From Pseudovibrio exalbescens DSM 16456 (lineage in GTDB: Bacteria; Pseudomonadota; Alphaproteobacteria; Rhizobiales; Stappiaceae), in assembly GCF_000422785.1 (NCBI RefSeq), contig NZ_AUGS01000001.1:1-64000 (forward strand): 64,000 nt of DNA, written 5' to 3'. Of the stretch, positions 11,447 through 26,073 are shown in pieces. Numbering within the stretch: position 1 is the first letter of the stretch; each line of letters opens with the position of its first letter. A program made the position numbers and the translations under genes. A model generated the notes under the pieces. The model saw only the letters and a list, made by a program, of their open reading frames with translations. It was not told the DNA's origin and made no database searches.

Positions 11447-11476
11447 TGATCCTTGATCAGGTAGGATACGTAGTTT
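11447..11476 (+). promoter_or_regulatory. Candidate ECF (RpoE/ChrR-type) promoter
   Basis: TGATCC (11447-11452), 18-base spacer, TAGTTT (11471-11476). Same form as the promoters around rpoE-chrR. It lies 30 bases before the DUF6134 gene start. Confidence 0.6.
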
Positions 11477-11505
11477 TAAGGTGCACAGATGAAAGGATCG
11501 CCCGC

Positions 11506-12144
11506 ATGCGCAGCCTCAAATCTCTCGCCCTCGCAGCCATGATGACGAGCGCTATGAGTGTCAGTGCTCCAGCCGCACCCGCCAATATAAGCTTCATAGT
11601 GGAACGCAATGGTTCGCCTATCGGAACCTATTCAACGCGTTTTTCCGGCTCCAGCAACAATTTGAGTGTTGATGTAGACATGCGATTGCGTGCCCGGTTT
11701 CTTGGCATTCCGGTCTATCGTTTCAACTATTCGGCCAATGAGCGCTGGCGGAATGGTCAGCTGCAAGCGCTTGATGTATCGCTGGACAACAATGGCGAAA
11801 AACGCAATCTGGAGGGCGAGCGCGCTGGCAACAGGTTTGTCTGGACGGCAAACGGAGAACAGCGCAGCGTCAACGGAAACATTTTCCCGTCCAACCACTG
11901 GAATCCTCAGGTCCTGCGTCAAAATCGGGTTTTGAATACCCTGACTGGAAAGGTCAGTCGCGTGAGTATTCGGAACCGCGGAACTGAACAACTGCAATGC
12001 GAGAACCGGACGATCAATGCAACTCGCTATCAGTACACCGGGCAGATCGATACAGAGGCGTGGTATGATCAGCAAGGCCGGTGGGTGGGACTTCGGTTCA
12101 AGGCACAGGATGGATCGACAATTTTCTTCAGATGCAAAGGCTAG
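11506..12144 (+). CDS. Exported DUF6134-family protein
   Basis: 212 residues from the ATG after AAGGA (MRSLKSLALAAMMTSAMSVSAPAAPANISF). A signal peptide ends near residue 24, so the product is periplasmic. The mature part looks all-beta (NISFIVERNGSPIGTYSTRF..., with repeated polar strands, ending RWVGLRFKAQDGSTIFFRCKG) and resembles the DUF6134 family, whose function is not established. It leads an operon with an SDR (2-base gap) and a SnoaL-like protein behind an ECF-type promoter, which ties it to the photooxidative-stress regulon. A role in envelope lipid handling is only a guess. Confidence 0.72.
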   Translation: MRSLKSLALAAMMTSAMSVSAPAAPANISFIVERNGSPIGTYSTRFSGSSNNLSVDVDMRLRARFLGIPVYRFNYSANERWRNGQLQALDVSLDNNGEKRNLEGERAGNRFVWTANGEQRSVNGNIFPSNHWNPQVLRQNRVLNTLTGKVSRVSIRNRGTEQLQCENRTINATRYQYTGQIDTEAWYDQQGRWVGLRFKAQDGSTIFFRCKG

Positions 12145-12146
12145 GG

Positions 12147-12908
12147 ATGTCCCAAGACCGTTTACCGTGGAAGACAGCATGGGTCATTGGCGCAAGTTCC
12201 GGTATTGGAGCTGCCACTGCCAAACGATTGAGTTCGGCAGGCGTCAAGGTCGTTGTGAGTGCGCGAACGGAAGGGGCTTTGGAGGAGTTGGCGGCGACCT
12301 CCGCGAACCTGTGTGTTCAGACTGTAGATGTAACAGATGATGCCAGTGTTGGAGCTGCGTTCAACGCCGTGATGGACAAGATTGGCGTGCCCGATTTGGT
12401 CTTGTACAGTGCTGCCGTTTATACGCCGGGCGGTCTATCTGTCCTCACTGGCGACGAAGCGATGCATCATATGGATGTGAACTACGGCGGCGCGGTGCGG
12501 ACACTTCAGGCAGTCTTGCCGTCCATGATGGAGGTGGGGCGAGGAGGGGTTGGTATTGTTTCCTCCTTGACGGGATACGCGGGGCTGCCGAACGCGGCGG
12601 TCTACGGGCCGACAAAAGCGGCCTTGATCAGTTTGTGCGAAACGATCAAGCCGGAGCTTGATGCCTCCGGGGTTGCGCTTTCTGTCATCAATCCCGGATT
12701 TGTGCGAACGCCGTTGACGGAAAAAAATACCTTCGAGATGCCATTCATCATCGAGCCTGATCAGGCCGCTTCCCATATTGTCGCCGGGCTGCGGCGCGGC
12801 AAGTTCGATATCGCATTTCCATGGCAGATGGCTGTGATGTTGAAGTTCATTCGTCTTCTGCCATATCCCATCTATTTCCGTTTCATGAAAAGATTGCTGC
12901 GCTCATGA
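12147..12908 (+). CDS. Short-chain dehydrogenase/reductase
   Basis: 253 residues starting MSQDRLPWKTAWVIGASSGIG, chosen from AAAGG six bases upstream and the two-base gap after the preceding stop. Classical SDR features: the NAD(P)-binding GASSGIGAA near residue 15, a serine in VSSLTGYAG and Y-x-x-x-K in VYGPTKAAL. NADP is plausible from SARTE after the second strand. The C terminus has a hydrophobic patch (MAVMLKFIRLLPYPIYFRF) suggesting membrane contact. Middle gene of the DUF6134-SDR-SnoaL operon; substrate unknown, perhaps a lipid-derived alcohol or ketone. Confidence 0.85.
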   Translation: MSQDRLPWKTAWVIGASSGIGAATAKRLSSAGVKVVVSARTEGALEELAATSANLCVQTVDVTDDASVGAAFNAVMDKIGVPDLVLYSAAVYTPGGLSVLTGDEAMHHMDVNYGGAVRTLQAVLPSMMEVGRGGVGIVSSLTGYAGLPNAAVYGPTKAALISLCETIKPELDASGVALSVINPGFVRTPLTEKNTFEMPFIIEPDQAASHIVAGLRRGKFDIAFPWQMAVMLKFIRLLPYPIYFRFMKRLLRS

Positions 12909-13351
12909 GCCAATTGACTGACACTGCCTTGTCTGAACAAACCGCAGAAGCCTACGCTCGGTTTTTTGAAGAGCTTCAACCCGAGACCGTTCGCCAAGTG
13001 CACGATCTGGTGTCCGATGATGTTCATTTTATTGATCCATTCAACAATGTGCATGGCCGCGAGATGGTGGAGAAAATCCTTCACCGCATGTTTCACGACG
13101 TGCAGTCGCCTAAGTTCAAGATCCTCAATCTGATGTGGTCCGACGGGCTTTGCTTCATGAGATGGGACTTCAGTTGTCATCAGAAGCTGTTGGGCGACTG
13201 GAGCGTTCGAGGCATGACGGAGCTTCATTTTGATGCGGAGGGGCGTGTGTCAGCGCACTACGACTATTGGGATGCCAGCACTCATTTCTATCGGCATATT
13301 CCGGTTGTTGGCAGTTTGATCCGCATGATCAAGAAACGTGCGTCCGTCTAG
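12905..13351 (+). CDS. SnoaL/NTF2-like protein
   Basis: 148 residues from an ATG overlapping the SDR stop (ATGA), so translation is coupled. It is a single NTF2-like cone fold (about 12-135: HFIDPFNNVHGREMVEKILHRMF, WDFSC, GMTELHFDAEGRVSAHYDYWDAST). Such proteins are isomerases, cyclases or hydrolases, or just binding folds. The last residues are basic with a hydrophobic segment. Its 3' end overlaps the convergent MFS gene by four bases. The SDR-SnoaL pair is commonly found with chrR-type regulons (family knowledge); activity unknown. Confidence 0.8.
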   Translation: MSQLTDTALSEQTAEAYARFFEELQPETVRQVHDLVSDDVHFIDPFNNVHGREMVEKILHRMFHDVQSPKFKILNLMWSDGLCFMRWDFSCHQKLLGDWSVRGMTELHFDAEGRVSAHYDYWDASTHFYRHIPVVGSLIRMIKKRASV

Positions 13352-14703
13352 GCTCGTTCCCGCATTTCGAGGCGTCTGCGGATTGATCTTTGAGCCCGTG
13401 TCGTGATCGGGAAATTCCACATGAGTGCGATAACGCCCATTTTAAGTGCTACTGGAAGCAGCGCGTAAACCACCGCAAGAACATCCAGAGAAAACTGAGA
13501 GTTTGGTTCACCAGCCCGGAAACCAAAGAACTCCACCAATGGCAAGCAAACCCCCGCAGCCACCGCAAGAGACAACTTGGCGGTCAGGGTCCATGATGAA
13601 TAGAGAATCCCGCGACGCTTTCGCCGGGAGCGAAATTCGTCCCAATCTGTCACATCAGCAAACAGAGACGCCGGCAAAGCCAGATCTGCCCCAAGGCAGA
13701 GGCCGGTTATGACGCATACGATGCCGAATTCAAGCACGGCGCCTTCTGGCAGGAATGGCACAACAGTAAAAGTGATTGAAACAATGATGATCGAGACCAG
13801 CCAGAGTTTGGCTTTGTCTCGATTTCTGCTGAGATAGAGCCATAGCGGCAAACCAAGAATGGCACAGAAGAAATACAGAAAAATCAGCAAGTTCTTTTGT
13901 TGTTCTGTGGTCTTGAGAACATCCGTCAAAAAAAACGGAAACAGAACGGTGCCCGTACCATTGGCCAGTCCGTTGACAAGCCAGGCCGAGACGATAACCA
14001 CAAAGGGTTTGTTTTTGCCAAGACTGTTAAGGAACGAGCGCCAATCGTCGCGCTGATGGTGCGTTTCCGCCTCTCTCATGCGGGGAGCTTCGCGGACCAG
14101 TGCGAGCAGAAAGCTGATTGTCGCCGCTCCGGTGACGATGGTTATGAGGGCGATGGCGAAGAACTGCTCATTGGTTGGGACGCCTGATGCCTTGAGAATT
14201 GCAGGAAGGGCGCTTGCCAGAACGATACCGGCCAAGGTTGCCCCTTCCCTGGCGGAGGCAAAGCGGGTGCGATCATAGGCACCAACGGCCAGCTCGGCGC
14301 CCAAAGCGTTGTATGGAATTGAGAAAAACGTCCATCCCACATAAAGCCCGCAGAGGAACACGACCATCTCCAGCAGGCTGGTTGACGGGTCGGGTATGGA
14401 CAACAGCACCAGCGCCGGGGCAGCTAACAATCCGCCCAAGAGCATCCATGGTTTGCGCTTGCCCCATCGCGTGGGGAACCGGTCCATAAGCCAACCGACA
14501 ATTGGATCTGTCGCCATGTCCAGCAAGCGAGCGATCAGAAGGCCAAGCCCAATCGCAGCCAAGCTTAACGAGGTTGCGGTGGCATAGTACTGCGGCAACA
14601 GTACCAGAACGGGCAGGGTGGGCAGGGCTGTCGCCAGCCCTGGCAAGGCGTAGAGGGTGAGATCGCGATTAGAACGCACGTACCACCTTGAAGAAGCCGA
14701 CAT
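13348..14703 (-). CDS. GPH-family MFS transporter
   Basis: 451 residues from the ATG at 14703; a GTG at 14679, with AAGGTGG three bases before it, is an alternative. About 12 membrane helices and the MelB-like signature DPIVGWLMDRFPTRWGKRKPWMLLG after helix 2, plus LPASLFADVTDWDEFRSRRKRRG in the second half, place it in the glycoside-pentoside-hexuronide:cation symporter family. It is the last gene of the flavin oxidoreductase-DUF1365-CFA operon and overlaps the CFA gene. In that context it may move a lipid-related molecule rather than a sugar (inference). Confidence 0.82.
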   Translation of the reverse strand: MSASSRWYVRSNRDLTLYALPGLATALPTLPVLVLLPQYYATATSLSLAAIGLGLLIARLLDMATDPIVGWLMDRFPTRWGKRKPWMLLGGLLAAPALVLLSIPDPSTSLLEMVVFLCGLYVGWTFFSIPYNALGAELAVGAYDRTRFASAREGATLAGIVLASALPAILKASGVPTNEQFFAIALITIVTGAATISFLLALVREAPRMREAETHHQRDDWRSFLNSLGKNKPFVVIVSAWLVNGLANGTGTVLFPFFLTDVLKTTEQQKNLLIFLYFFCAILGLPLWLYLSRNRDKAKLWLVSIIIVSITFTVVPFLPEGAVLEFGIVCVITGLCLGADLALPASLFADVTDWDEFRSRRKRRGILYSSWTLTAKLSLAVAAGVCLPLVEFFGFRAGEPNSQFSLDVLAVVYALLPVALKMGVIALMWNFPITTRAQRSIRRRLEMRERA

Positions 14704-15916
14704 CAATCGACTTCGCCTTGAAACCGGCTTCACAGTAGGCCAGATAGTAGTGCCACATCCGCTTGAAGCGCTCATCAAAGTTCATTGATGAAATGCGGGG
14801 CCATGCTTCTGTGAAGCGTTCGTTCCATGCCGCAAGGGTTCGGGCATAATCGTGGCCGAAATACTCTTCATGCACCAGCTTCAAGCCGCACCGTTCGATG
14901 ATTTTCTTCAGAACGGACGGGCTCGGCAGCATTCCACCGGGGAAGATGTATTTTTGAATGAAATCAACGCTTTTGCTGTACTGGTCATAGCGTCCATCTT
15001 CGATGACAATGGCTTGAATGACCGCAGAGCCGTTGTCCTTGAGACGATCGTGGATGATCGAGAAATAATGATCCCAGTTGTCTTTGCCGACCGCCTCGAT
15101 CATCTCGATGGAGACAATGTGATCGTAACTACCGTCGGTGTCACGATAGTCGCGCAGTTCGAACTGTGCGTTCTCCGAGAAGTTCTTGGCCAGACTGCGC
15201 TGGCGCGCATAGGTCAGTTGTTCGTTTGACAAGGTGACGCCGTGAACAAACGCGTCGCGCTCTGCGGCTTTCTCGGCAAAGCCACCCCAACCACACCCGA
15301 TTTCCAGAATGCGGTCGCCGGCCTTCGCCTCGGCGAGGTCCAGAACACGATCGTATTTTTGCTGTTGTGCGGTCTCCAACGCTTGGCCTTCGTTGTATCG
15401 GTAGGCCGAGGAATACGTCATGCTCGGGTCAAGCCACTGCTCGTAAAAGGCATTGCCGAGATCATAATGAAAGGCAATGTTTCGCTTGCTGCCGCGCTTT
15501 GTATTGGCGTTCATCCAGTGCATGAGGCGATTGAGCCAACGCGTGGCTGTACCCTTCAAATGGATGCCGCGGAAACTGCGGGTATTGATCAAGAAAAGCT
15601 CGAATAGGTCTGTCAGATCCGAACAGCTCCAATCGCCTTCCATGTAGCATTCTGCCAAGGACAGGTGCCCGCCAAGGGCAAGACGGCGGAATGTGCGCTC
15701 CCGATGGATCCGAACCTCGACGGCCGGTGCCTCCGATGTCCGATGTCCAAACTCTGCACGGTCTCCCTCTGGGAAAACCAGTGTCAAATGGCCCTTTTCC
15801 AAGTGGTGCAACACGGCAACGATGGCGCGTCGCCACAGGTTCATTTTCGGGAGACGGGTCTGCTTTCGGGATGTATCAAGCGCGCTCGCTGCGACGCGGT
15901 TTTCTTCAACGCTCAT
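14669..15916 (-). CDS. CFA-synthase-family fatty-acyl methyltransferase
   Basis: 415 residues, start MSVEENRVAAS with GGAAG before the ATG, which overlaps the DUF1365 stop. Residues about 110-400 are a SAM-dependent methyltransferase of the cyclopropane synthase family: HYDLGNAFYEQWLDPSMTYSSAY, the SAM loop VLDLAEAKAGDRILEIGCGWGG, YDHIVSIEMIEAVG and FIQKYIFPGGMLPS. Members transfer methylene or methyl to unsaturated phospholipid acyl chains at the membrane. In photooxidative regulons such enzymes can make methylated fatty acids (UfaM of the furan fatty acid pathway) rather than cyclopropanes. Which of these applies cannot be told from sequence alone. Confidence 0.85.
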   Translation of the reverse strand: MSVEENRVAASALDTSRKQTRLPKMNLWRRAIVAVLHHLEKGHLTLVFPEGDRAEFGHRTSEAPAVEVRIHRERTFRRLALGGHLSLAECYMEGDWSCSDLTDLFELFLINTRSFRGIHLKGTATRWLNRLMHWMNANTKRGSKRNIAFHYDLGNAFYEQWLDPSMTYSSAYRYNEGQALETAQQQKYDRVLDLAEAKAGDRILEIGCGWGGFAEKAAERDAFVHGVTLSNEQLTYARQRSLAKNFSENAQFELRDYRDTDGSYDHIVSIEMIEAVGKDNWDHYFSIIHDRLKDNGSAVIQAIVIEDGRYDQYSKSVDFIQKYIFPGGMLPSPSVLKKIIERCGLKLVHEEYFGHDYARTLAAWNERFTEAWPRISSMNFDERFKRMWHYYLAYCEAGFKAKSIDVGFFKVVRAF

Positions 15917-16743
15917 TGAACTTCCTTGCCGTAAGTAATTGTATCTGCCGACATTCGTGTAACCAATTGCGCCGGAGGTTCGGGGCGGGGCTGAAGTTTG
16001 GCACCTTTGCGCCACATCTTGAGCGCCTCCCAATGGATCCCAGCAAGTATTTTGAATCCGCCCTGAAAATAGCGCAGAGCGAACCACAACAGACTTCGTG
16101 TTGTCAGTGCTTTTTCATGCCCCTTGAACGCAGCGGTGAGCACTGGCCCGTTACGATCAAACTGCCGAATGAGGATAGAGGCTGTCTCTCCCGGTTGCCT
16201 CACTCGGAAATGATAGGTGCAATCCATATGGATGAACGGTGAGACATAAAACTTCTTGTCACAGGCGTGAGCCAGTGCGTCCGATGAGGGATCAACTTCC
16301 GTGAGATAATGATGCCATTGCCCAAAGGTATTGCGTACCTGATAAAGAACAGCTCGCAGCGTGCCTTGCTGGTCGTGACAGAAGAAGATGGACAATGGAT
16401 TGAATGCATGGCCGAGAAATCTCGGATAGGCCAGGAGCGTGATTTGTCCGACATCAAACGAAATGTCGTTATCTGTCAGCGCGGCCAAAACGAACTGGCG
16501 CAAGGACGTGTAACCCTCCGGCATGTGATCTTGCTCGAAAAAGCCAAAAATGTTCCAGCGGTTGACTGATAGCACCGGACTAAGGCGGTCAATTTCGGGC
16601 AGGCGATCAATGTCCAGAAACATTGAGAACACGGTGTAACGCAGCTTGTGGCTGAGGTCCTGATGTCGGGTATGCACCACCTCGCCAAGGTAGAAACGAG
16701 CCGGGCTGGTGTGGTTCGGCGATGGTGCGGGGGTGGTGCTCAT
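15913..16743 (-). CDS. DUF1365-family protein
   Basis: 276 residues: RFYLGEVVHTRHQDLSHKLRYTVFSMFLDID at the start, YPRFLGHAFNPLSIFFCHD in the middle and KKFYVSPFIHMDCTYHFRV after, all standard for DUF1365. Function not established, but it is nearly always between a flavin amine-oxidase-like protein and a CFA-type methyltransferase, as here, and is thought to act with them on membrane fatty acids. Starts 5 bases after the oxidoreductase stop and overlaps the next gene. Confidence 0.9.
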   Translation of the reverse strand: MSTTPAPSPNHTSPARFYLGEVVHTRHQDLSHKLRYTVFSMFLDIDRLPEIDRLSPVLSVNRWNIFGFFEQDHMPEGYTSLRQFVLAALTDNDISFDVGQITLLAYPRFLGHAFNPLSIFFCHDQQGTLRAVLYQVRNTFGQWHHYLTEVDPSSDALAHACDKKFYVSPFIHMDCTYHFRVRQPGETASILIRQFDRNGPVLTAAFKGHEKALTTRSLLWFALRYFQGGFKILAGIHWEALKMWRKGAKLQPRPEPPAQLVTRMSADTITYGKEVQ

Positions 16744-16748
16744 GCCAG

Positions 16749-18101
16749 TTACTCCGCTGCAACCTGTTGCTGAAGCTGCGAAACAGTGGTGGACGGCAGA
16801 GAAATCCGGCCTGACTCGTTTTCAACGGTCCAGGGGCGGCGCACCCCGCCCAAGGCTTCCGCAACGGCCAGACCTGCTTGCAGTCCATCCTCGTGAAAAC
16901 CGTGTCCAAAATAGGCGCCACAAAACCATGTGCGGTTGTGGCCCTGCAATTCCCAAAGGCTAGATTGCGCATTCATTGCGGCAGTGTCAAACAGTGGGTG
17001 ACTGTAGACGAAGCTGCGCAGTACCGAGCCTTCCGCCGGTTGATGCGTTGGGTTCAAAGTCACGAATAGATCCTGATCGCAGCTCAAATTTTGCAGCCGG
17101 TTCATCCAGTAGGTCACGCAGAGATCGCCGGGGCATTGAGCCGTGTCGGTGCGTTTGATGTAGTTCCAGCTTGACCATGCGCGCCGCGCTCGCGGCATCA
17201 ACGATGGATCCGTGTGCAGGAGCGCAACGTTCTTCTGGTACTGTATGGCTCCCAGCAACGCTCTTTCGCGATCACTCACGCCCAGCTTTCCGCTTTCCAG
17301 AAGGCGCAAGGCCTGATCCGAGTGGGTTGCCACGACAAGGTGATCGAACCGCTCGCTCTCGCCATCCCGATCCACCAGCTCAATGAAACCTGGCATCCTG
17401 TTTACGTGCTCTATCGTTGCGTTCAGTCTGACGCCTCCGGATATGCCTGCGGCCAAACGGTCAACGTAGTTTTTGCTGCCGCCGGAAACCGTGCGCCATT
17501 GCGGGCGATCCTTGAATTGAATAAGGCCATGGTTCTGGCAGAACCCAATGAAACTCTTGAATGGAAAGGCCAGCATGCGTTCAGCCGGCATGGACCAGAT
17601 TGCAGCTCCCATGGGAATGAGATGGTCATGAATGAAACCGGATGAGTATCTCTGGTCTTCCAGATACTGAGAAAGGGTATAGGTGGTCGGTTTGCGCTGT
17701 GCGTCCTGCGCAGCTTCAGTGTAAAACCGACGGATGTCACTCAAGATGCTCCAAAACCGTGGCCGTACTAGATTGCGGCGTTGAGCGAACAATCCATTCA
17801 GACCTGTGCCTGAGTATTCAAATCGCCCTTCGTCCGATGACACAGCGAAAGACATATCCGAGTTCTCGGTTCGGACCGATATGTGTTGGAACAGTGCTGT
17901 CAAATTTGGGTAGGTTTGTTCGTTGTAGACAATGAACCCCGTATCGACGGGCACCACTTTGCCCCCAACCTCCACAAGCTGGGTGTTGGAGTGGCCGCCA
18001 AGACGGTCATCCTTCTCGAAGAGCGTTACGTCATGTTGCTTGGATAAAAGCCATGCGGCTGACAAACCCGAAATACCTGACCCGATAACAGCAATCTTCA
18101 T
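16749..18101 (-). CDS. FAD-dependent oxidoreductase (amine-oxidase/desaturase fold)
   Basis: 450 residues from the ATG (MKIAVIGSGISGLSAAWLL); a GTG two codons upstream is possible. It has an N-terminal FAD dinucleotide fold with GSGISGLSAA and DRLGGHSNT, VPVDTGFIVYNEQTYPNL, and a C-terminal FAD segment (FCGAYFGHGFHEDGLQAGLAVAEALGG). It belongs to the flavin-containing amine oxidase/phytoene-desaturase-like group found with DUF1365 and CFA synthases. It leads a four-gene operon from an ECF-type promoter divergent from rpoE. Possible roles are fatty-acid desaturation or furan formation (UfaD-like), or cyclopropene formation; unresolved. Confidence 0.85.
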   Translation of the reverse strand: MKIAVIGSGISGLSAAWLLSKQHDVTLFEKDDRLGGHSNTQLVEVGGKVVPVDTGFIVYNEQTYPNLTALFQHISVRTENSDMSFAVSSDEGRFEYSGTGLNGLFAQRRNLVRPRFWSILSDIRRFYTEAAQDAQRKPTTYTLSQYLEDQRYSSGFIHDHLIPMGAAIWSMPAERMLAFPFKSFIGFCQNHGLIQFKDRPQWRTVSGGSKNYVDRLAAGISGGVRLNATIEHVNRMPGFIELVDRDGESERFDHLVVATHSDQALRLLESGKLGVSDRERALLGAIQYQKNVALLHTDPSLMPRARRAWSSWNYIKRTDTAQCPGDLCVTYWMNRLQNLSCDQDLFVTLNPTHQPAEGSVLRSFVYSHPLFDTAAMNAQSSLWELQGHNRTWFCGAYFGHGFHEDGLQAGLAVAEALGGVRRPWTVENESGRISLPSTTVSQLQQQVAAE

Positions 18102-18131: not shown

Positions 18132-18161
18132 TTCCTATGGGGGTTTGTGCTTATTGGATCA
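18132..18161 (-). promoter_or_regulatory. Candidate ECF promoter of the oxidoreductase-DUF1365-CFA operon
   Basis: Reverse strand TGATCC (18161-18156), 18-base spacer, TAGGAA (18137-18132); the ATG is 31 bases further on. Divergent from the rpoE promoter. Confidence 0.65.
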
Positions 18162-18185: not shown

Positions 18186-18215
18186 TGATCCATGGAGCGC
18201 TGTCACGCGTAACAA
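18186..18215 (+). promoter_or_regulatory. Candidate autoregulated ECF promoter of rpoE-chrR
   Basis: TGATCC (18186-18191), 18-base spacer, TAACAA (18210-18215). It closely follows the TGATCC-N18-TA form known for Rhodobacter RpoE (ECF11). The start codon is about 30 bases downstream. Confidence 0.7.
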
Positions 18216-18245: not shown

Positions 18246-18851
18246 GTGCCCTATCACCAACGAGAAATTGAGGATTCGGGCGGCAGGGGGGCAGTGGTGA
18301 ACCCCAACCGTTTAAGTCAGGTTCTCTCGTCGTTTAGTGAAACGCAGGATCGTGGGGCTTTTCGCGAGCTATACGATTATTATGGCCCGCGATTGAAACA
18401 ATTCTATATGAAGTCGGGCACAGACGAGGCAACTGCAGAAGAGATGGTGCAGGAAACCTTCGTGTTGGTTTGGCGCAAAGCGCACCTATACGACGTAACG
18501 AAGGCGGCTGCATCCACATGGATCTTCACAATTGCCCGAAATCACCGGATTGATCGGATCCGTCGCGAAAAAAGGTTTGTATCTAAAGATGAACATTATT
18601 TTGAGACGGAGCTCGTTGCGGAAGGGGATCAGGATGAAAATGTTGATCAGCCCAAGATGTCTTCGATCATCCAAAAGGCGTTGGCAGAATTGCCAGCTAA
18701 TCAAGCTGAGCTAGTAAAGCTGTCGTTTTACGAAGAAGTGACACATGCGGAGATTGCGAGCCGTTTGCAATTGCCGCTGGGCACAGTGAAATCGAGACTT
18801 AGACTGGCATTTGGGCGGCTGAGGAAGAAACTGGCAGAGTTTGAGACATGA
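18246..18851 (+). CDS. rpoE: ECF sigma factor, RpoE/SigK type partnered with ChrR
   Basis: 201 residues from a GTG after AGGA; a GTG at 18297, behind a GGGGGG run, is an alternative. Region 2 spans about 30-100 (FRELYDYYGPRLKQFYM, EEMVQETFVLVWRKAHLYD, STWIFTIARNHRIDRIRRE) and region 4 about 135-195 (LPANQAELVKLSFYEEVTHAEIASRLQLPLGTVKSRLRLAFGRLRKKL). It directs RNA polymerase to TGATCC-N18-TA promoters when freed from the anti-sigma encoded next, whose start overlaps its stop. The self-promoter at 18186 implies autoregulation. By analogy with Rhodobacter sphaeroides, the trigger is singlet oxygen. Confidence 0.9.
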   Translation: MPYHQREIEDSGGRGAVVNPNRLSQVLSSFSETQDRGAFRELYDYYGPRLKQFYMKSGTDEATAEEMVQETFVLVWRKAHLYDVTKAAASTWIFTIARNHRIDRIRREKRFVSKDEHYFETELVAEGDQDENVDQPKMSSIIQKALAELPANQAELVKLSFYEEVTHAEIASRLQLPLGTVKSRLRLAFGRLRKKLAEFET

Positions 18852-19507
18852 TCAATCACCATATCAGTGATGAAATGCTCATGAGTTATGCGGCTGGTGC
18901 CTTGTCTGAGGGGGCAAGCCTGTTTGTAGCCAGCCACATTCACATGTGCAAGAAATGTGCGCAGCGCGTCTTCACGGCGGAAGCTGTGGGCGGGGCACTG
19001 GTCGACGATCTGGATGGGGTGCCAATGACATCCTGCGGGTTTGACGACCTAATGGCGCGTATCGAGTCGGAAGAGCAGGTCTCGGCAAGCCAGAATGATA
19101 TTCTGGTAGAGCCAGAGTTGAACCATATTCCAGAGCCTTTGCAGTTGCTACTGGGTAAGGATTACAAGGATCTGCCCTGGAAGAGCGTGGCACCGGGTGT
19201 GAAGCAGTTCATCCTGCCGGTTGGCGGGAATCGTGGCGAGAAAACACGACTATTGAAGTTGTCGCCCGGGTTTGTCACCCCTGAACATAGCCACAAGGGG
19301 TACGAGCTCACCATGGTACTTCAGGGGTCATTCTCTGATGAGAGCGGACGGTACAAACTCGGTGATGTACAGGAAGCAGATGGTGAAATTGATCACCAGC
19401 CTATTGCTGATACAGACGAGGACTGCATTTGTCTGGTTTACACAGACGCGCCTCTGGAGTTCAAAGGCGTATTAAATCGGATGCTTCAGCCCTTCTTTGG
19501 GATCTGA
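18848..19507 (+). CDS. chrR: ChrR-type zinc anti-sigma factor with cupin domain
   Basis: 219 residues. The N-terminal zinc anti-sigma domain has ligands H5, H30, C34 and C37 (H-x3-C-x2-C), the ChrR spacing. The C-terminal cupin (about 100-205) holds metal-ligand candidates in TPEHSHKGYELT and the His of EIDHQP. In Rhodobacter, ChrR holds RpoE inactive and the cupin is needed for the response to singlet oxygen. The start overlaps the sigma stop by four bases (ATGA). A terminator follows at 19526. Confidence 0.93.
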   Translation: MINHHISDEMLMSYAAGALSEGASLFVASHIHMCKKCAQRVFTAEAVGGALVDDLDGVPMTSCGFDDLMARIESEEQVSASQNDILVEPELNHIPEPLQLLLGKDYKDLPWKSVAPGVKQFILPVGGNRGEKTRLLKLSPGFVTPEHSHKGYELTMVLQGSFSDESGRYKLGDVQEADGEIDHQPIADTDEDCICLVYTDAPLEFKGVLNRMLQPFFGI

Positions 19508-19560: not shown

Positions 19561-19568
19561 GTTGAGCC

Positions 19569-21221
19569 TCAGGACTTCTTTGCCGGAAGACGCGGTTCAC
19601 TGCTCAGCCCCGAAATCAGGGAGAAACATGCAAGCAGCAATACAATAGCGAAGGGGAAGCCGGTAGAGACCGACATGGCCTGCAGCGCGGTCAGGCCGCC
19701 ACCAACCAACAGCGCAATTGCAACCAACCCAACGAAGATCACCCAGAAGACCCGCTGTGTCAGCGGTGCGTTGACCTTGCCGCCGGCTGTGATCGTATCG
19801 ATCACCAGGGAACCGGAGTCAGACGATGTGACAAAGAAGACAATCACGAGCGTAATGCCGATGAGTGAAGTCAACTGAGCCCATGGCAGAATGTTGAGCA
19901 TTTCGAACAGGCGCAGCTCCACGGAGGCGTCAAAGATCGCTTGTTCACCCCCCAGAACTGCTAGGTCGATGGCCGAATTGCCGAAAATGGTCATCCAGAG
20001 GATGGAAACGACAGAGGGAACCAGCAATACACTGACGATAAACTCGCGCACTGTTCGGCCGCGGCTGACGCGAGCGATGAACATGCCCACAAACGGTGAC
20101 CAGGAAATCCACCAGGCCCAGTAGAACGAAGTCCAGCCTTGGCGGAATTGATCGTCCTCACGGCCAAACGGCGCGGCAAGAGCCGGCAGATGCTCCAGAT
20201 AAGCCGTCATGTTGTCAAAGAAGCTGGTAATCAGGTGCCACGTCGGTCCGACCAAGATCATGAAAAGGGCTAGCATGGCAGCGAGCAACATGTTGATTTC
20301 GGAAAGACGCTTCACGCCTGCATCAAGCCCGGCCACGACAGAGGCCATGGCGATGGCACTGATGCCGATGACCAGCATGATCTTTACGAGGCTTGTCGGC
20401 TCAATGCCAAACAGATACTGCAGCCCGGCAGTTGCTTGTTCAGCGCCCAGCCCCAGCGAGGTGGCCAGCCCTGAGAGGGTTGCGAATACGGCCAGAATAT
20501 CAATGATGTGGCCAGGCCAGCCCCAAATCTTTTCGCGGAAGATCGGATAGAAGATAGAACGAAACGTGAGAGGCAGGCCCTTGTTGTAAGCGAAAAGCGC
20601 CAGAGACAGCCCGACAATGGCGTATACCCCCCACGGGTGTAGCGCCCAATGGAAAATCGTTGCCGCCATGCTGAGGCGCGTCGCTTCTGCAACATTGCCA
20701 GCTGCGCCACCTAAAGGTGCCCAGTCCGTCCGGCCCGCTTCACCGTAAACAACCCCGTCAATTGCGCTGGAGTAATGAGAAATGGGTTCGGATACACCAT
20801 AGAAAATCAACCCGATACCCATGCCGGCGGCAAAGAGCATTGAAAACCAGCCGATGTAGCCAAAGTCGGGCACCGCCTTGCGTCCGCCAATGCGGATGCG
20901 ACCCAACGGCGAGATGGCAATGCCCAAGGCAAGCACGACGAAAACATTGCCAGCGAGCAGGAAGAACCAGTCGAAATTCGAGGTCAACCAAACGCGCACG
21001 CCTGAGAATACGGGGCCGACACTGTCATGAAACAGCAGAACTGCCGCTACAAAACTGATCACCACCAAGCCAGAAATAGGGAAAACCGGCTGGTGAATGT
21101 CCAGGCCGAAGGGGCCGATTCTGGTTCTGACGTTGTCCTGTCCGACCTCGTAGTCTGTATCAATGATCGAAACTGCTCCGTCCGGAGCTGGAATTGCGTC
21201 TGTACCGGTAATATCGGTCAT
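19569..21221 (-). CDS. BCCT-family betaine/choline-type transporter
   Basis: 550 residues from the ATG (MTDITGTDAIPAPDG). Twelve membrane helices, with family signatures AAGMGIGLIFYGVSEP (glycine-rich helix), HWALHPWGVYAIVGLSLALFAYNKGLP and WAWWISWSPFVGMFIARVSRGRTVREF. Members bring in glycine betaine, choline, carnitine or DMSP by sodium or proton symport. The N-terminal tail is about 50 residues; the C-terminal tail is short, so a long osmosensing tail as in BetP is absent. Substrate not decidable. Convergent with chrR; nothing shows that it belongs to the ECF regulon. Confidence 0.9.
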   Translation of the reverse strand: MTDITGTDAIPAPDGAVSIIDTDYEVGQDNVRTRIGPFGLDIHQPVFPISGLVVISFVAAVLLFHDSVGPVFSGVRVWLTSNFDWFFLLAGNVFVVLALGIAISPLGRIRIGGRKAVPDFGYIGWFSMLFAAGMGIGLIFYGVSEPISHYSSAIDGVVYGEAGRTDWAPLGGAAGNVAEATRLSMAATIFHWALHPWGVYAIVGLSLALFAYNKGLPLTFRSIFYPIFREKIWGWPGHIIDILAVFATLSGLATSLGLGAEQATAGLQYLFGIEPTSLVKIMLVIGISAIAMASVVAGLDAGVKRLSEINMLLAAMLALFMILVGPTWHLITSFFDNMTAYLEHLPALAAPFGREDDQFRQGWTSFYWAWWISWSPFVGMFIARVSRGRTVREFIVSVLLVPSVVSILWMTIFGNSAIDLAVLGGEQAIFDASVELRLFEMLNILPWAQLTSLIGITLVIVFFVTSSDSGSLVIDTITAGGKVNAPLTQRVFWVIFVGLVAIALLVGGGLTALQAMSVSTGFPFAIVLLLACFSLISGLSSEPRLPAKKS

Positions 21222-21628
21222 TATGCCTCTTTTTTGCGCAGCGGGGACACTCAATGGGAGAGGCGTCACACCAGTTTCGCTTGCCGAAATCTCGGGCGAA
21301 ACATCGCGCGTTCTGTTTGTTTCCAGCGGTGGTCAAAGCGCAGGCACAATACAACAATACCCAGCACGCATGGTGCCAGTTTCACCTCCACCGAGGAGAC
21401 TGGAAGTTGTATTGCAAAATCCGCAGCCCGACCTGAGGACCGCTTTTGTTTCTTGGGTGTTGTGGCTGGCGCTGCCCCACCCGACTGAAAGCGTTTTATG
21501 CGCCTGAATCAAAGACTTGCAGCATAAGAGAAGCCTTTGAGAAATCTGTTGTATGGTGCTTTCGAGGATATTGGGTACTCCTCGCGAAAGCGTCGGTCAA
21601 TAGTGCTAATACGTAGAACGGACGCCGA

Positions 21629-21809: not shown

Positions 21810-22032
21810 GTTGAGTAATTTTTGACGGCACCTTGATAGGTGGCATCGGGCCGAAAATTGATATGATTTTTTTTAGGAAATCGTGATGTTGCACTCATGT
21901 TGATGACCAAATTCAGCCAAAATTGAGAGAATCTTTGACTATGCGTTTAAGGAGGTGGGGCCGTCCCTCATTCGCAGTAAACGAACAGATCCTGTAGGTT
22001 TTCTGCTAGGTTTTGTATTTATACCGATGAGT

Positions 22033-22062
22033 TGATCCTGTTTACTGTGCTCTGCGTACCGC
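22033..22062 (+). promoter_or_regulatory. Candidate ECF promoter of the photolyase gene
   Basis: TGATCC (22033-22038), 18-base spacer, TACCGC (22057-22062). The -10 is the weakest of the set. A start of transcription near 22069 supports the GTG start at 22091 over an earlier GTG at 22064. Confidence 0.5.
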
Positions 22063-22090
22063 TGTGAAGAAAACAACGAGAAGTGTTGGC

Positions 22091-23647
22091 GTGCAGATTG
22101 TTTGGTTCAAGAAAGATCTCAGGATCACTGACCATCGCCCTTTGATCGAGGCGATGCAGCATGGCACCGTCTTGCCGCTGTATGTGGCGGAACCGGAGTT
22201 GTGGCAACAGCCTGATGCCTCGGAGCGCCAATGGTGTTTTGTTAAGGAGTGCTTGAAGGAACTTGACGGGGACCTGCGCAAATTGGGGCAGGGGCTCATT
22301 CTGCGTATTGGGTCGGTGACCGATGTTCTGGATGAACTCAAAATGTCTTGTGGTGTTGCCGGAGTTTGGGCCCATGAAGAAACCGGCAATGGTTGGAGTT
22401 TTGCCCGGGATCGCACGGTATCCGCATGGTGTCGGTTGAATGGGGTGCGATTTCATGAGTTCCCGCAGACCGGTGTGATCCGGGGGCTATCCAGCCGGGA
22501 TGGGTGGGCGCGCAAGTGGGACCGCTTCATGAGGGCGGACATTTTACCAGCACCCAAGACCCTCGAGCCTGTGCTTGATGAGCCGTTTCACCTCCCGACT
22601 GCTGCGGATTTGGGGTTGGAAGAAGATTTTTGCCCAGGCCGACAGCGCGGCGGCCGTCGAGAGGGACAGCGAATACTGTCATCTTTTTTGGCGGAGCGGG
22701 CGGGGCCATATCGCCGTTCGATGTCCAGCCCCTTGAGCGCTGAAAGACATTGTTCGCGCTTGTCGCCTTATCTGGCCTATGGGTGTGTTTCCATGCGTGA
22801 GGTTGCGCAAGCGACCTGGGGACGTCAAAGGGAATTAAAAGAACAGGCGAACCCACCTCAAGGGTGGAGAGGGTCTCTGTCTTCCTTCGCGGGGCGGCTG
22901 CATTGGCATTGTCACTTCATGCAGAAACTTGAGGATGCCCCTTCCATCGAGTTTAAAAATCTCCATCCGGCATATGATGGGCTGCGTGATGTGAGCAACG
23001 AATCTGTATTGGCGGCATGGTCTGCTGGGCAGACAGGATTTCCGTTCGTGGATGCCTGTATGCGTTATCTGCGCCATGGCGGCTGGGTGAACTTCCGGAT
23101 GCGGGCCATGTTGATGGCGTTCGCGAGCTATCACTTGTGGCTTAACTGGCGGGAGCCGGGCCTTCATCTGGCACGACAGTTCGTGGATTATGAACCGGGT
23201 ATTCACTGGCCGCAGGTGCAAATGCAATCGGGCACCACGGGCATCAATACTGTCCGTGTCTACAATCCCGTCAAACAGGGCTATGATCAGGATGGCGGTG
23301 GCGAGTTTGTTCGCCGGTGGGTTCCCGAACTGGCTGCGGTTCCCACATCGTTCATTCATGAGCCCTGGAAGTGGGAGGAGGCGTCGTCAATTCTGGACAA
23401 GAGCTATCCAGTTCCGATCGTTGACCACATGTCGGCTGCGAAGGCAGCTCGGCAGAAAATATGGGCGCTGCGCAAGAGTGAAGAATTCAAGCTGCGTTCG
23501 GCTGCCATTCAGACCAAACATGGCAGCCGAAAAAGCGGGTTAGCGCAGGTGCAGCAGAAACCCAAGGCCAGTAGGCGCAAAGCCGAGACACGGGGCGGGG
23601 ATGGTGGTCAGATGTCGTTCTTGTTTGACGGCCCCAATCAATCTTGA
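22091..23647 (+). CDS. phr: Deoxyribodipyrimidine photolyase (cryptochrome/photolyase family)
   Basis: 518 residues from a GTG (VQIVWFKKDLRITDHRP), the usual family start. Antenna-binding alpha/beta domain about 1-130; FAD-binding helical domain about 195-450, with SPYLAYGCVSMREV, FAGRLHWHCHF, TGFPFVDACMRYLRHGGWVNFRMR and YNPVKQGYDQDGGGEFVRRWVPEL. It uses blue light to split cyclobutane pyrimidine dimers; a cryptochrome role cannot be excluded. The last 60 residues are basic and probably disordered. An ECF promoter candidate lies just upstream. The 3' end overlaps the convergent Fe-S photolyase by ten bases. Confidence 0.88.
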   Translation: MQIVWFKKDLRITDHRPLIEAMQHGTVLPLYVAEPELWQQPDASERQWCFVKECLKELDGDLRKLGQGLILRIGSVTDVLDELKMSCGVAGVWAHEETGNGWSFARDRTVSAWCRLNGVRFHEFPQTGVIRGLSSRDGWARKWDRFMRADILPAPKTLEPVLDEPFHLPTAADLGLEEDFCPGRQRGGRREGQRILSSFLAERAGPYRRSMSSPLSAERHCSRLSPYLAYGCVSMREVAQATWGRQRELKEQANPPQGWRGSLSSFAGRLHWHCHFMQKLEDAPSIEFKNLHPAYDGLRDVSNESVLAAWSAGQTGFPFVDACMRYLRHGGWVNFRMRAMLMAFASYHLWLNWREPGLHLARQFVDYEPGIHWPQVQMQSGTTGINTVRVYNPVKQGYDQDGGGEFVRRWVPELAAVPTSFIHEPWKWEEASSILDKSYPVPIVDHMSAAKAARQKIWALRKSEEFKLRSAAIQTKHGSRKSGLAQVQQKPKASRRKAETRGGDGGQMSFLFDGPNQS

Positions 23648-25170
23648 AGGGTAGCCAAAAAAGCCTCTGCCGTTTGCAAGTAGTCCTTTTGCTTTTCCGG
23701 AGCCATGCGGGCCCATGTTCGGTATACCTGCGCAAGCCGTGGATTTTGTTGGAGCTTGGCGGCGTTTCGTTGCAGGAAGTGCCAGTACAGTGAATTGAAA
23801 GGGCATGCGTTCGGCCCCGTTTTCTTGTTTACGGAGTACCGGCAGCTGTCGCAGTAGTTCGACATCTTCTTTATGTAATTGCCGCTGGCTGCATACGGTT
23901 TGGAAGCCAGCAGACCGCCATCGGCAAACTGGCTCATGCCCAAGGTATTGGGTAGCTCTACCCATTCATAGGCATCCGCATAAACCGCCAGATACCATTC
24001 ATGGATTTGTTTGGGTTCCACACCAACAAGCATGGCGAAGTTTCCCGTGATCATCAGGCGCTGGATGTGGTGGGCATAGGCATGGTGCTTTGTTTGCCCG
24101 ATTGCTTGACTGAGGCAATGCAGGTCCGTTTCCGCTGTCCAGTAGAACCATGGCAGGTTTCGGTTTGCGTCCAGGGCGTTTTCGTCTACGTAGCCAGGCA
24201 TTTTGAGCCAATAGATGCCGCGAATGTATTCCCGCCAACCGATGATTTGTCGGATGAACCCTTCCACGCAGTTCAGGGGCGCGTGCCCTTCATGGTAGGC
24301 GTGTTCCGCTTTGCGGCATATCTCCAGCGGTGACAGCAAGCCGCTGTTCAAGTACTGCGCGAGCAGGGAATGGTACAAGAACGGCTCGTCAGTAAGCATG
24401 GCATCTTGATAGTCGCCAAATAGGGGCAGGGCTTCCTCGATAAAGTGATCCAGCGCTTTCAGGGCATCTTCGCGGGTGACCGCATACCAAAACGGTTGCA
24501 GATCACCGAAGTTGTCGGCAAATCGAGCTTCCACCAGGTCAAGCACCTCACGTGTTATCGTGTCAGGTGAGACCTTGAACGGTTGTGGCATGAACAGGCT
24601 GTCGGAAGCCGGTTTGCGGTTTTCCTGATCGAAGTTCCATTGGCCGCCTTCGGGCTCGCTGCCGGCCATCAGCAGACCCGTTTTGCGGCGCATTTCGCGA
24701 TAGAAATACTCCATGCGCAGTTGCTTGCGGCCTTTGGCCCAGCTACGGAACTCGGTGTGGCTGCAAACGAACCGGGTATCCGGTCTGATCTCCAAATCGC
24801 ACGAAAGATCCTCTGCCAGTTCCTTGAAGGCTTGCAGAAGTCGCCACTCGCCCGGTTCGGTAAGAACGATGTGCTCGGGCTGGTAGTCGGCTGCCAACCT
24901 CTTGACTTCGCCGACAAGGTCGCCGGTGTTGTGTGCATCGTCATAGCGGGTGTAAGCAATATGCCAGCCCATGTCCTCCAGCGCCTTGGCATGGTGACGC
25001 ATGGCGCTGAAGATGTACGCAATCTTCTTTTTGTGATGGCCAACATATGACGCTTCTGTGTGCACCTCCGCCATGACCACCAAGGAGGTCGCCTTGTCCA
25101 TACCTTCAAGGCTGGACATGTCAGGGCTTAGTTGATCACCGAGCATGACGATAAGGTGCGATATGGACAC
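23638..25170 (-). CDS. Fe-S bacterial (6-4) photolyase/cryptochrome (PhrB/CryB type)
   Basis: 510 residues from a GTG with AGGAGAG upstream. N-terminal DPRP domain (LIVMLGDQLSPDMSSLEG...) and C-terminal FAD domain. The four iron-sulfur ligands are C352, C440, C443 and C456. Their spacing of 88, 3 and 13 is exactly that of C350, C438, C441 and C454 in Agrobacterium PhrB. HAYAHHIQRLM carries the two histidines needed for (6-4) repair. It should repair (6-4) photoproducts with FAD and a lumazine antenna; relatives such as Rhodobacter CryB also regulate photosynthesis genes. Convergent with the other photolyase and divergent from an SDR gene. Confidence 0.92.
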   Translation of the reverse strand: MSISHLIVMLGDQLSPDMSSLEGMDKATSLVVMAEVHTEASYVGHHKKKIAYIFSAMRHHAKALEDMGWHIAYTRYDDAHNTGDLVGEVKRLAADYQPEHIVLTEPGEWRLLQAFKELAEDLSCDLEIRPDTRFVCSHTEFRSWAKGRKQLRMEYFYREMRRKTGLLMAGSEPEGGQWNFDQENRKPASDSLFMPQPFKVSPDTITREVLDLVEARFADNFGDLQPFWYAVTREDALKALDHFIEEALPLFGDYQDAMLTDEPFLYHSLLAQYLNSGLLSPLEICRKAEHAYHEGHAPLNCVEGFIRQIIGWREYIRGIYWLKMPGYVDENALDANRNLPWFYWTAETDLHCLSQAIGQTKHHAYAHHIQRLMITGNFAMLVGVEPKQIHEWYLAVYADAYEWVELPNTLGMSQFADGGLLASKPYAASGNYIKKMSNYCDSCRYSVNKKTGPNACPFNSLYWHFLQRNAAKLQQNPRLAQVYRTWARMAPEKQKDYLQTAEAFLATLQD

Positions 25171-25293
25171 GGGTTGGCTCTCCTGTTGGTCCGCTTGAGG
25201 GAGAGGATAGGGCGCTGTGGTTGGATTTCCGTTGACGTGTTACGCAATTCTTGTCGTACGGCAGGGATAGAGCTTTGCTATTCAAAGGTTTTT

Positions 25294-25323
25294 TGATCTT
25301 CTGCGCGAAAGTGGTCGTATCAA
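25294..25323 (+). promoter_or_regulatory. Candidate ECF promoter of SDR gene
   Basis: TGATCT (25294-25299), 18-base spacer, TATCAA (25318-25323). One -35 mismatch from the other four; the ATG is 31 bases downstream. Confidence 0.5.
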
Positions 25324-25353
25324 GTGGTGCTTGCACAGGGAAAGGATCGGACC

Positions 25354-26073
25354 ATGACACTCAATCGTATCGTGATTGTGGGCGCTTCCGGTGGCATTGG
25401 CCGTGCGTTGGTGGAGCAATCCATTCGCCGATATCCGGAAGCCCAGATTTTTGCATTCTCTCGCGGACAGGCTGTGTTTTCCGATGCTCGGATCGAACCG
25501 GGATACCTGGACCTCGAGAAACCAGAGAGCATCAAAGCAGCGGCTCAGACAATACCGGATGGCGGGCTTGATCGCGTCATTGTTGCCAGCGGCATGCTTC
25601 ATGATGATGCGTGCCAGCCCGAGAAGAGTTGGCGAGACCTTGAAGCTGACGCGATGTTGAAGCTCTACGCCGTCAATACCGTGGGGCCTGCTCTCGTTCT
25701 CAAGCATTTCGTGCCCCTGCTGCATCGGCGCAAACCGGCAACCTTTGCCGCCGTTTCTGCGCGGGTCGGCAGTATCTCTGACAACCGGTTAGGGGGATGG
25801 TACTCCTATCGTGCTTCCAAGGCGGCGCTGAACATGGTGCTCAAATCCGCGAGTATCGAGTATGCTCGCAAGAACAAGGAGGGTGTGATCGTCGGTCTGC
25901 ACCCAGGCACCGTAGACAGTTCCTTGTCTGCGCCGTTTCAGGCAAATGTGCCTGAAGGCAAACTGTTTTCACCGGCATACTCGGCGAATTGCCTGCTGGA
26001 TGTCCTCGATGAGCTGAGGCCGGAGCAAACGGGCCAGTGCTTTGCGTGGGATGGCCAACCGATTCCAGCCTGA
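25354..26073 (+). CDS. Short-chain dehydrogenase/reductase (CsgA-like)
   Basis: 239 residues from the ATG after AAAGGA (MTLNRIVIVGASGGIGRALVE). GASGGIG binds NAD(P); YSYRASKAALNM provides Y-x-x-x-K; HPGTVDSSLSAPFQANVPEGKLFSPAYSA is typical of the CsgA/carbonyl-reductase-like subgroup often found next to photolyase genes. Substrate unknown. Divergent from the Fe-S photolyase and behind an ECF-type promoter, so it is probably another member of the photooxidative regulon. Confidence 0.85.
   Translation: MTLNRIVIVGASGGIGRALVEQSIRRYPEAQIFAFSRGQAVFSDARIEPGYLDLEKPESIKAAAQTIPDGGLDRVIVASGMLHDDACQPEKSWRDLEADAMLKLYAVNTVGPALVLKHFVPLLHRRKPATFAAVSARVGSISDNRLGGWYSYRASKAALNMVLKSASIEYARKNKEGVIVGLHPGTVDSSLSAPFQANVPEGKLFSPAYSANCLLDVLDELRPEQTGQCFAWDGQPIPA

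What the first reader, a model, noticed from the sequence alone, without database searches (positions are those of the whole stretch)
11447..26073. A clustered photooxidative-stress regulon with five matching ECF promoters
TGATCC (or TGATCT) - exactly 18 bases - TA is found 30-60 bases upstream of the DUF6134 operon (11447), the flavin oxidoreductase operon (18161, reverse), rpoE-chrR (18186), the photolyase (22033) and an SDR next to the Fe-S photolyase (25294). In Rhodobacter sphaeroides the RpoE/ChrR targets are mostly scattered; here nearly all of them lie within 15 kb around the regulator. Seen: motifs and layout. Known: the ECF11 promoter form. Inferred: shared regulation by singlet oxygen.
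Basis: partly seen in the sequence, partly recalled or inferred. Interest (0 to 1): 0.8.

Follow-up and report, generated by a model that had tools for sequence, protein, structure and literature searches.

The report
Singlet-oxygen sigma factor regulon cluster
A Pseudovibrio-like bacterium keeps five predicted target operons of its RpoE-ChrR oxidative-damage switch (the switch itself, furan fatty acid genes, a photolyase relative, an envelope-type protein of unknown function and a dehydrogenase) in one 15 kb block with five matching switch sites; it is a tidy new example of a known system, with the unknown protein as its one fresh lead.

Summary
The five motifs are real and behave like ECF11 (RpoE/ChrR) promoters. 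The better form is TGATCY-N16-C(G/A)TA. The exact consensus TGATCC-N16-CGTA occurs three times in the 4.16 Mb genome, all three in this cluster. All five sites lie 32-34 bases before a plausible start codon and recur before the same genes in Pseudovibrio exalbescens. Unseeded motif counting outside the genus gives the same element, which equals a published ChIP-seq consensus.

The content is known: rpoE-chrR, furan fatty acid (ufa) genes and a photolyase-type gene are core RpoE-ChrR targets, and ufa genes beside rpoE-chrR are common, in Rhodobacter sphaeroides too, so 'mostly scattered' is overstated. 'Nearly all in 15 kb' needs correction: rpoHII, elsewhere, carries a site; the Fe-S photolyase beside the SDR does not.

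Newer details: DUF6134 genes have such a site upstream in 14 of 29 other alphaproteobacterial loci (0.33 expected), with a predicted EipB-like barrel fold; the cluster photolyase-type protein lacks the WRE motif present in all 16 other photolyase copies examined in the genus. Induction by singlet oxygen is inferred from homology, not shown.

The parts
11447..11472 (+). Predicted ECF11 promoter, TGATCC-N16-CGTA, before the DUF6134-SDR-SnoaL genes
   Evidence: 33 bases from TA to ATG; site also before the orthologue in P. exalbescens and P. flavus
11506..12144 (+). DUF6134 protein with a signal-peptide-like N-terminus (by eye); predicted all-beta, EipB-like barrel
   Evidence: Pfam PF19630 194.9 bits; model pLDDT 91.8; Foldseek best 6NTR
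12081..12908 (+). Short-chain dehydrogenase SDR1 (RSP_1087-like by family; start uncertain)
   Evidence: Pfam adh_short
12821..13351 (+). SnoaL/NTF2-like protein (start uncertain)
   Evidence: Pfam SnoaL_2
13348..14778 (-). GPH-type symporter, last gene of the ufa operon (ORF probably extends 5' of the true start)
   Evidence: Pfam MFS_2; TIGR00792 below its cut-off
14669..16087 (-). UfaM-like fatty acid methylase, CMAS family (ORF probably extends 5' of the true start)
   Evidence: Pfam CMAS 284 bits; role from PMC7380195 passages; not compared directly with RSP2144
15913..16743 (-). UfaO-like DUF1365 protein
   Evidence: Pfam DUF1365; position as RSP1090; not compared directly
16749..18101 (-). 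UfaD-like FAD oxidoreductase, first gene of the ufa operon
   Evidence: Pfam Amino_oxidase and NAD_binding_8; start
18136..18161 (-). Predicted ECF11 promoter of the ufa operon, TGATCC-N16-CATA
18186..18211 (+). Predicted autoregulatory ECF11 promoter of rpoE-chrR, TGATCC-N16-CGTA
18246..18851 (+). RpoE, ECF11-type sigma factor
   Evidence: best PDB match 2Q1Z chain A (RpoE, ECF SigE), E 2.7e-38
18848..19507 (+). ChrR, zinc anti-sigma factor with cupin domain
   Evidence: TIGR02451 205.9 bits, cut-off 124.5; 2Z2S chain B E 7.1e-47
19569..21269 (-). BCCT transporter between chrR and the photolyase-type gene; not found in the P. exalbescens stretch
   Evidence: Pfam BCCT
22033..22058 (+). Predicted ECF11 promoter of the photolyase-type gene, TGATCC-N16-CGTA
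22091..23647 (+). Divergent photolyase/cryptochrome-family flavoprotein with WHC in place of the class I WRE/WRD motif
   Evidence: Pfam FAD_binding_7; start
23638..25170 (-). Fe-S bacterial cryptochrome/photolyase (PhrB/CryB family); no ECF11 site found
   Evidence: 4DJA E 1.4e-211, four Cys aligned
25294..25319 (+). Predicted ECF11 promoter of SDR2, TGATCT-N16-CGTA
25354..26073 (+). Short-chain dehydrogenase SDR2
   Evidence: Pfam adh_short

Best explanation
This is a clustered ECF11 (RpoE-ChrR) regulon in a Pseudovibrio-like alphaproteobacterium. In the model carried over from R. sphaeroides, ChrR holds RpoE inactive until singlet oxygen or organic peroxides cause ChrR breakdown. Freed RpoE then transcribes from TGATCC-N16-CGTA promoters: its own operon (feedback), the ufaD-ufaO-ufaM operon for methylated furan fatty acids (in R. 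sphaeroides ufaD and ufaO also promote ChrR turnover), a photolyase-type flavoprotein, a DUF6134-SDR-SnoaL operon, a second SDR, and elsewhere in the genome rpoHII, which would widen the response. Shown here: the motifs, their spacing to starts, their rarity genome-wide, their conservation, and the sigma/anti-sigma pair. Inferred: binding, transcription starts, operon structure, the inducing signal, and the products' roles. Most speculative: DUF6134 as a periplasmic lipid- or envelope-handling protein.
For: RpoE and ChrR have the R. sphaeroides pair as best solved relatives. TGATCC-N16-CGTA occurs 3 times in the genome, all here; 5 of 21 TGATCY-N16-CRTA sites are here. Uniform 32-34 base gap to plausible starts. 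A site recurs before each of the five orthologues in P. exalbescens while 39 of 80 spacer bases agree, and before DUF6134, ufaD and rpoE in P. flavus. Outside the genus the top dyad is TGATC-N17-CGTA, in 34 of 53 rpoE and 19 of 42 ufaD upstream regions, against at most 4 for any dyad in three single-base shuffles of each set. The same consensus is printed for ChIP-seq of a homologue (PMC5507510 passages). rpoHII: site of 12 bits or more in 10 of 11 genus orthologues, the exception being a genome in which no ChrR was found; 0 of 16 RpoHI-type paralogues reach 8 bits.
Against: No expression data. The ufa site here has CATA, and in seven other genus loci both central promoters lack the CG (L142-L147, L149), so CGTA is not strictly needed and the scans miss some sites. 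In the matrix scan four sites with no known role score above the ufa site and five above the SDR2 site. The pattern TRAWCY-N16-CGTA is not enriched in the genome as a whole (23 matches, 37 for the reversed control). SDR2 has no site in 12 of 15 genus loci, and 15 of 29 DUF6134 loci have none of 12 bits or more.
Confidence: 0.93

Rival explanations
1. The rpoE-chrR and ufa sites are true ECF11 promoters, but the DUF6134, photolyase-type or SDR2 matches are chance; clustering is ordinary gene neighbourhood without shared control.
For: The loose pattern is common (156 in the genome); the SDR2 site scores lowest of the five (12.95); SDR2 homologues elsewhere have no site (12 of 15).
Against: The DUF6134 and photolyase-type sites are exact consensus, of which the genome has three. 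A site recurs at each of the three in P. exalbescens. DUF6134 has a site in 14 of 29 other loci against 0.33 expected. SDR2 has a site in the two genomes with SDR2 in the cluster and a weak one (8.2 bits) in a third where it lies nearby.
Confidence: 0.05
2. The motifs belong to another ECF sigma factor of this genome, not to the RpoE encoded here.
For: The genome's other ECF sigma factors were not examined here.
Against: The element sits before rpoE itself here and in 34 of 53 upstream regions outside the genus and equals the printed ChIP-seq consensus of a homologue. In the genus the rpoHII site is missing in the one rpoHII-bearing genome where no ChrR was found.
Confidence: 0.02
3. The regulon is real but the natural signal here is mainly organic peroxide or another oxidant, since the lineage is not known as a phototroph (recalled, not tested).
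For: In R. sphaeroides organic peroxides also trigger ChrR loss (PMC3818230 passages); [quoted passage not shown]
Against: Homologues of ufaD and ufaO, which R. sphaeroides needs for the singlet-oxygen but not the organic peroxide route, are present and under a predicted site.
Confidence: 0.25

Closest known systems
R. sphaeroides RpoE-ChrR regulon (RSP_1087-1093, RSP_2143 phrA, RSP_2144 ufaM, RSP_0601 rpoHII)
   Same: Cognate sigma/anti-sigma pair; ufaD, ufaO, GPH symporter, SDR and a small unknown-function gene beside rpoE; photolyase-type target; rpoHII site
   Different: Here an ufaM-type gene is inside the ufa operon, SDR and SnoaL genes form an opposite-strand set behind DUF6134 with its own site, the photolyase-type gene is next door and of a divergent type, and no FolE2 (PF02649) was found in the genome
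Pseudovibrio exalbescens rpoE locus (L031, L140)
   Same: Same gene order and all five sites
   Different: No BCCT match in the stretch held
Gammaproteobacterial rpoE2-chrR loci (Shewanella and Thalassotalea: L077, L078, L083-L087)
   Same: Same motif before rpoE in 7 of 7; ufaD, ufaO and ufaM types nearby in 7 of 7, SDR1 in 6, photolyase in 5; S. oneidensis has a photolyase-related gene plus SDR under RpoE2 (PMC4336711 passages)
   Different: The photolyase has the class I WRD/WRE motif; no DUF6134 match near rpoE in these loci
Azospirillum thermophilum plasmid block (L300)
   Same: DUF6134-SDR-NTF2 facing MFS, SAM methyltransferase, DUF1365 and FAD oxidoreductase, with sites before DUF6134 (21.8 bits) and before the oxidoreductase (19.9 bits)
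   Different: No rpoE-chrR or photolyase annotated in the 16.5 kb read; a DUF3833 gene is present

Membership tests
ECF11 RpoE-ChrR system | Sigma factor homologous to R. sphaeroides RpoE | tested here: met
   2Q1Z chain A E 2.7e-38, best PDB match
ECF11 RpoE-ChrR system | Adjacent ChrR with anti-sigma zinc site (HxxxCxxC) and cupin domain with His/Glu ligands | tested here: met
   2Z2S alignment shows matching H, C, C and the H-x-H, E and H positions; TIGR02451 over cut-off. Which residues are ligands is recalled
ECF11 RpoE-ChrR system | Autoregulatory promoter TGATCC-N16-CGTA before rpoE | tested here: met
   18186-18211; consensus as printed in PMC5507510
ECF11 RpoE-ChrR system | Core targets present with promoters (ufaD, ufaO, ufaM, photolyase, SDR) | tested here: met
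   assigned by family and order; the photolyase-type gene is a divergent type
ECF11 RpoE-ChrR system | Response to singlet oxygen, ChrR proteolysis | not testable with these tools
   needs cells
Class I CPD photolyase (22091-23647) | WRE/WRD motif holding the substrate-binding Glu (role recalled) | tested here: not met
   window and P. exalbescens have WHC there; 16 of 16 other genus copies have WRE, and L046, L077, L078, L084-L086, L159 have WRE or WRD
Fe-S bacterial cryptochrome/photolyase (23638-25170) | Four Cys of the Fe-S cluster (role recalled) | tested here: met
   four Cys align with PhrB 4DJA
EipB/DUF1849 or LolA superfamily (DUF6134) | Sequence-family match | tested here: not met
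   Pfam gives DUF6134 and one insignificant unrelated match
EipB/DUF1849 or LolA superfamily (DUF6134) | Similar fold | tested here: inconclusive
   6NTR chains E 2.1e-5 and 3.8e-5, TM 0.60-0.62 by query length, 7-8% identity; an unrelated sperm axoneme chain scores E 2.6e-5; LolA only at E 0.04 and weaker

The most novel reading that the evidence does not exclude
The RpoE-ChrR response of Alphaproteobacteria has an overlooked envelope arm: DUF6134, a periplasmic EipB/LolA-like barrel, with an SDR and an NTF2-like protein, is transcribed by RpoE together with furan fatty acid synthesis and binds or moves oxidised or furan-bearing lipids outside the inner membrane. The photolyase-type protein of the cluster would be a flavoprotein with a non-standard active site that stands in for the canonical enzyme in this regulon.
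Probability: 0.35. Interest if true: 0.6.

Novelty: new member of a known kind. Interest (0 to 1): 0.38.

Why it matters
As a regulon it is ordinary and repeats a known design in a lineage not thought of as phototrophic (recalled). It is useful in three ways: it gives a compact, testable target set for RpoE-ChrR; it shows the site on an SDR in or beside the cluster and not on its relatives elsewhere; and it ties DUF6134, which no paper in the held library names (that one search), to RpoE-ChrR promoters across Alphaproteobacteria, with a fold prediction that suggests an envelope role.

Tried and rejected
Rejected: that the five sites are simply the best five in the genome. In 450,804 bases scanned with a matrix from outside the genus they rank 1, 2, 4, 9 and 11. 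That sample is not random: at least 4 of its 20 stretches were chosen around rpoH genes and known pattern hits, so it is only a rough background.

Rejected: the Fe-S photolyase as a direct RpoE target. No site of 8 bits or more in the 400 bases upstream in the window or in 12 distinct relatives (13 rows, L140 repeats L031). Control by RpoHII, stated for R. sphaeroides cryB (PMC7074977 section 22), was not tested.

Rejected: canonical photolyase copies as targets in this genus: 0 of 16 loci have a site, highest score 1.4.

Led nowhere: papers on this divergent photolyase type (listings only); papers on Pseudovibrio and singlet oxygen (listing only); FolE2 (no match). The BCCT gene's own promoter was not looked for. 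Spacers of 17 and 19 were examined: 19 occurs before ufaD in several relatives, not at the five sites here.

Limits: the matrix was seeded with the known motif; the dyad count was not, and its shuffles keep single-base composition only. In some searches core positions agree partly by construction, because sites were found by pattern; recurrence in place and the diverged spacers are the evidence. ufa names rest on family and gene order; RSP sequences were not compared. RpoHII versus RpoHI was assigned by me from best-hit scores. Of the 56 loci counted, 53 have an rpoE match. DUF6134 loci are 30 of those from 117 matching genomes among 289 searched, mostly the best by score; the window's own was left out of the count, and it gave no site because its GTG-extended start hid the promoter.
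Full report
Observation. The loose form TGATCY-N18-TA is not rare: 156 in the 4,157,019-base genome; the window has 7 against 2.02 expected by shuffling. What sets the five apart is the tighter form and the position. TGATCY-N16-CRTA has 21 sites in the genome, 5 of them in this 14.6 kb; TGATCC-N16-CGTA has 3, all here. With the most plausible starts, the gap from the TA to the start codon is 33, 34, 34, 32 and 34 bases. A rough Poisson estimate for five loose matches in such upstream stretches is 4e-13 (stretches chosen after the fact).

Genes. Left to right: DUF6134, an SDR and a SnoaL/NTF2-like protein (forward); on the reverse strand a GPH-type symporter, a CMAS-family methylase, a DUF1365 protein and an FAD oxidoreductase; then rpoE and chrR (forward), a BCCT transporter (reverse), a photolyase-type gene (forward), an Fe-S photolyase (reverse) and a second SDR (forward). 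By family and order the reverse operon corresponds to ufaD (RSP1091), ufaO (RSP1090) and ufaM (RSP2144), which make methylated furan fatty acids in R. sphaeroides (PMC7380195, passages); the sequences were not compared directly. RpoE and ChrR have the R. sphaeroides pair as best solved relatives.

Conservation of the sites. P. exalbescens (L031, the same stretch as L140) has the same order and a site before each of the five orthologous operons, while 39 of 80 spacer bases agree. P. flavus (L032, L141) has sites before DUF6134, ufaD and rpoE; no photolyase-type gene of this kind was found there, and its SDR2, some 3 kb from chrR and in the other orientation, has a weak site of 8.2 bits. Eight other genus loci (L142-L149) have no DUF6134 match; there a site stands before SDR1 in 6 of 8. 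In 95 upstream regions from 56 loci outside the genus, an unseeded count of all 5-mer/gap/4-mer pairs puts TGATC-N17-CGTA first: 34 of 53 rpoE and 19 of 42 ufaD regions, at most 4 for any pair in three shuffles of each set. This is the consensus TGATCC-N16-CGTA printed for ChIP-seq of a homologue (PMC5507510, passages). A matrix from 75 of the 95 regions ranks the five 1, 2, 4, 9 and 11 in 450,804 bases.

Outside the cluster. The third-ranked site is before rpoHII on contig C6 (17.9 bits, TGAACC-N16-CGTA). In the genus 10 of 11 rpoHII orthologues (own included) have a site of 12 bits or more; the one without belongs to a genome (G026) where no ChrR was found. None of 16 RpoHI-type paralogues reaches 8 bits. 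ChrR and rpoHII occur together in 10 of 16 genus genomes, neither in 4, one alone in 2 (an exact test worked by hand gives about 0.013, ignoring relatedness). So the RpoE-to-RpoHII cascade of R. sphaeroides (PMC6852236 section 15) is predicted here, and its second sigma factor lies outside the cluster. FolE2, listed as an R. sphaeroides regulon member, has no match in this genome. A further candidate, C6:240162, has 15.4 bits and an ATG about 45 bases on; it was not followed.

Is the clustering special? Partly. Of 56 chrR loci outside the genus (53 with an rpoE match), 41 have ufaD and ufaO types within the stretch held, 29 have all three ufa types, 11 have a photolyase-type gene and 2 have DUF6134 (my thresholds). 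All 10 other genus loci with ChrR have all three ufa types. Published work describes ufaD and ufaO next to rpoE-chrR as frequent in Alphaproteobacteria (PMC3818230, passages; PMC7074977, section 22). What is unusual is the full set in one block: DUF6134 operon, ufa operon, regulator, photolyase-type gene and SDR2. Among the loci examined only this genome and P. exalbescens have it.

Details that differ. (1) The photolyase-type gene is not the canonical enzyme. In the genus it was found only here and in P. exalbescens; each of the 16 genus genomes also has a copy of the ordinary type, none with a site. All 16 ordinary copies carry WRE where this protein and its orthologue carry WHC. The 20 listed plasmid relatives, at 40-58% identity, are from Tritonibacter, Novosphingobium, Deinococcus, Duffyella, Pseudorhodobacter, Pseudoalteromonas and Vibrio; of four examined, the two from Rhodobacterales have a site of about 14 bits just upstream and two do not. 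(2) The Fe-S photolyase has no site here or in 12 relatives, although in S. oneidensis a photolyase-related gene listed with an SDR in its operon depends on RpoE2 (PMC4336711, passages). (3) SDR2 has a site here and in P. exalbescens, a weak one in P. flavus where it lies near the cluster, and none in 12 others. (4) DUF6134: of 289 genomes of the class searched, 117 have a match. Of 29 loci other than the window's, 14 have a site of 12 bits or more within 400 bases upstream and 15 do not, against 0.33 expected from the rest of the same loci; 12 of the 29 have an SDR1-like match in the 2.3-3.6 kb held. Its structure is predicted with pLDDT 91.8 as almost all beta. The best solved matches are DUF1849/EipB (6NTR, TM 0.60-0.62 by query length), an unrelated sperm axoneme chain at a similar E-value, then VioE and, weakly, LolA. 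EipB is described as a periplasmic envelope-integrity protein whose barrel resembles LolA and LolB (PMC10787603, passages). No paper in the held library names DUF6134.

Mechanism. Shown by sequence: candidate promoters, regulator pair, target set. Inferred from R. sphaeroides: ChrR loss under singlet oxygen, furan fatty acid synthesis, the feedback of ufaD and ufaO on ChrR turnover, and rpoHII activation. Speculative: DUF6134 as a lipid- or envelope-handling partner.

Verdict. It is a new, tidy member of a known system, with DUF6134 as the point most worth testing.

Noticed in passing
19569-21269: A BCCT transporter gene sits between chrR and the photolyase-type gene; in P. exalbescens these two are adjacent and no BCCT match was found in the stretch, so it was inserted here or lost there.
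   Followed up: partly
L142-L147, L149 (other genus loci): The ufaD and rpoE sites there keep TGATCC but end in CCTAAAAAGA or GGTAAAAAGA (or close variants) instead of CGTA, a shared shift on the -10 side in that clade.
   Followed up: no
G000:C6:231222-231247 (L191; L176:9222): rpoHII carries an ECF11-type site; present in 10 of 11 genus orthologues, missing where no ChrR was found.
   Followed up: yes
G000:C6:240162-240187 (L192; L176:18162): Further candidate site TAATCC-N16-CGTA, 15.4 bits, with an ATG about 45 bases downstream.
   Followed up: no
G000:C4:133888-133913 (L094): TGATCT-N16-CATA, not overlapped by an ORF of 100 aa, 91 bases before a 203 aa ORF.
   Followed up: no
22091-23647: Photolyase-type protein of a divergent kind, WHC in place of WRE/WRD, with relatives on plasmids of Rhodobacterales, Novosphingobium, Deinococcus and Pseudoalteromonas.
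   Followed up: partly
L300 (Azospirillum thermophilum plasmid), 7851 +, 15189 -, 10468 -: The DUF6134 and ufa modules with ECF11 sites occur on a plasmid stretch with no rpoE annotated in the 16.5 kb read; a third site (17.6 bits) lies upstream of a DUF3833 gene.
   Followed up: partly
L142-L147, L149, L152, L067, L069, L070: The Fe-S photolyase gene lies near rpoE-chrR repeatedly but in different positions and orientations.
   Followed up: no
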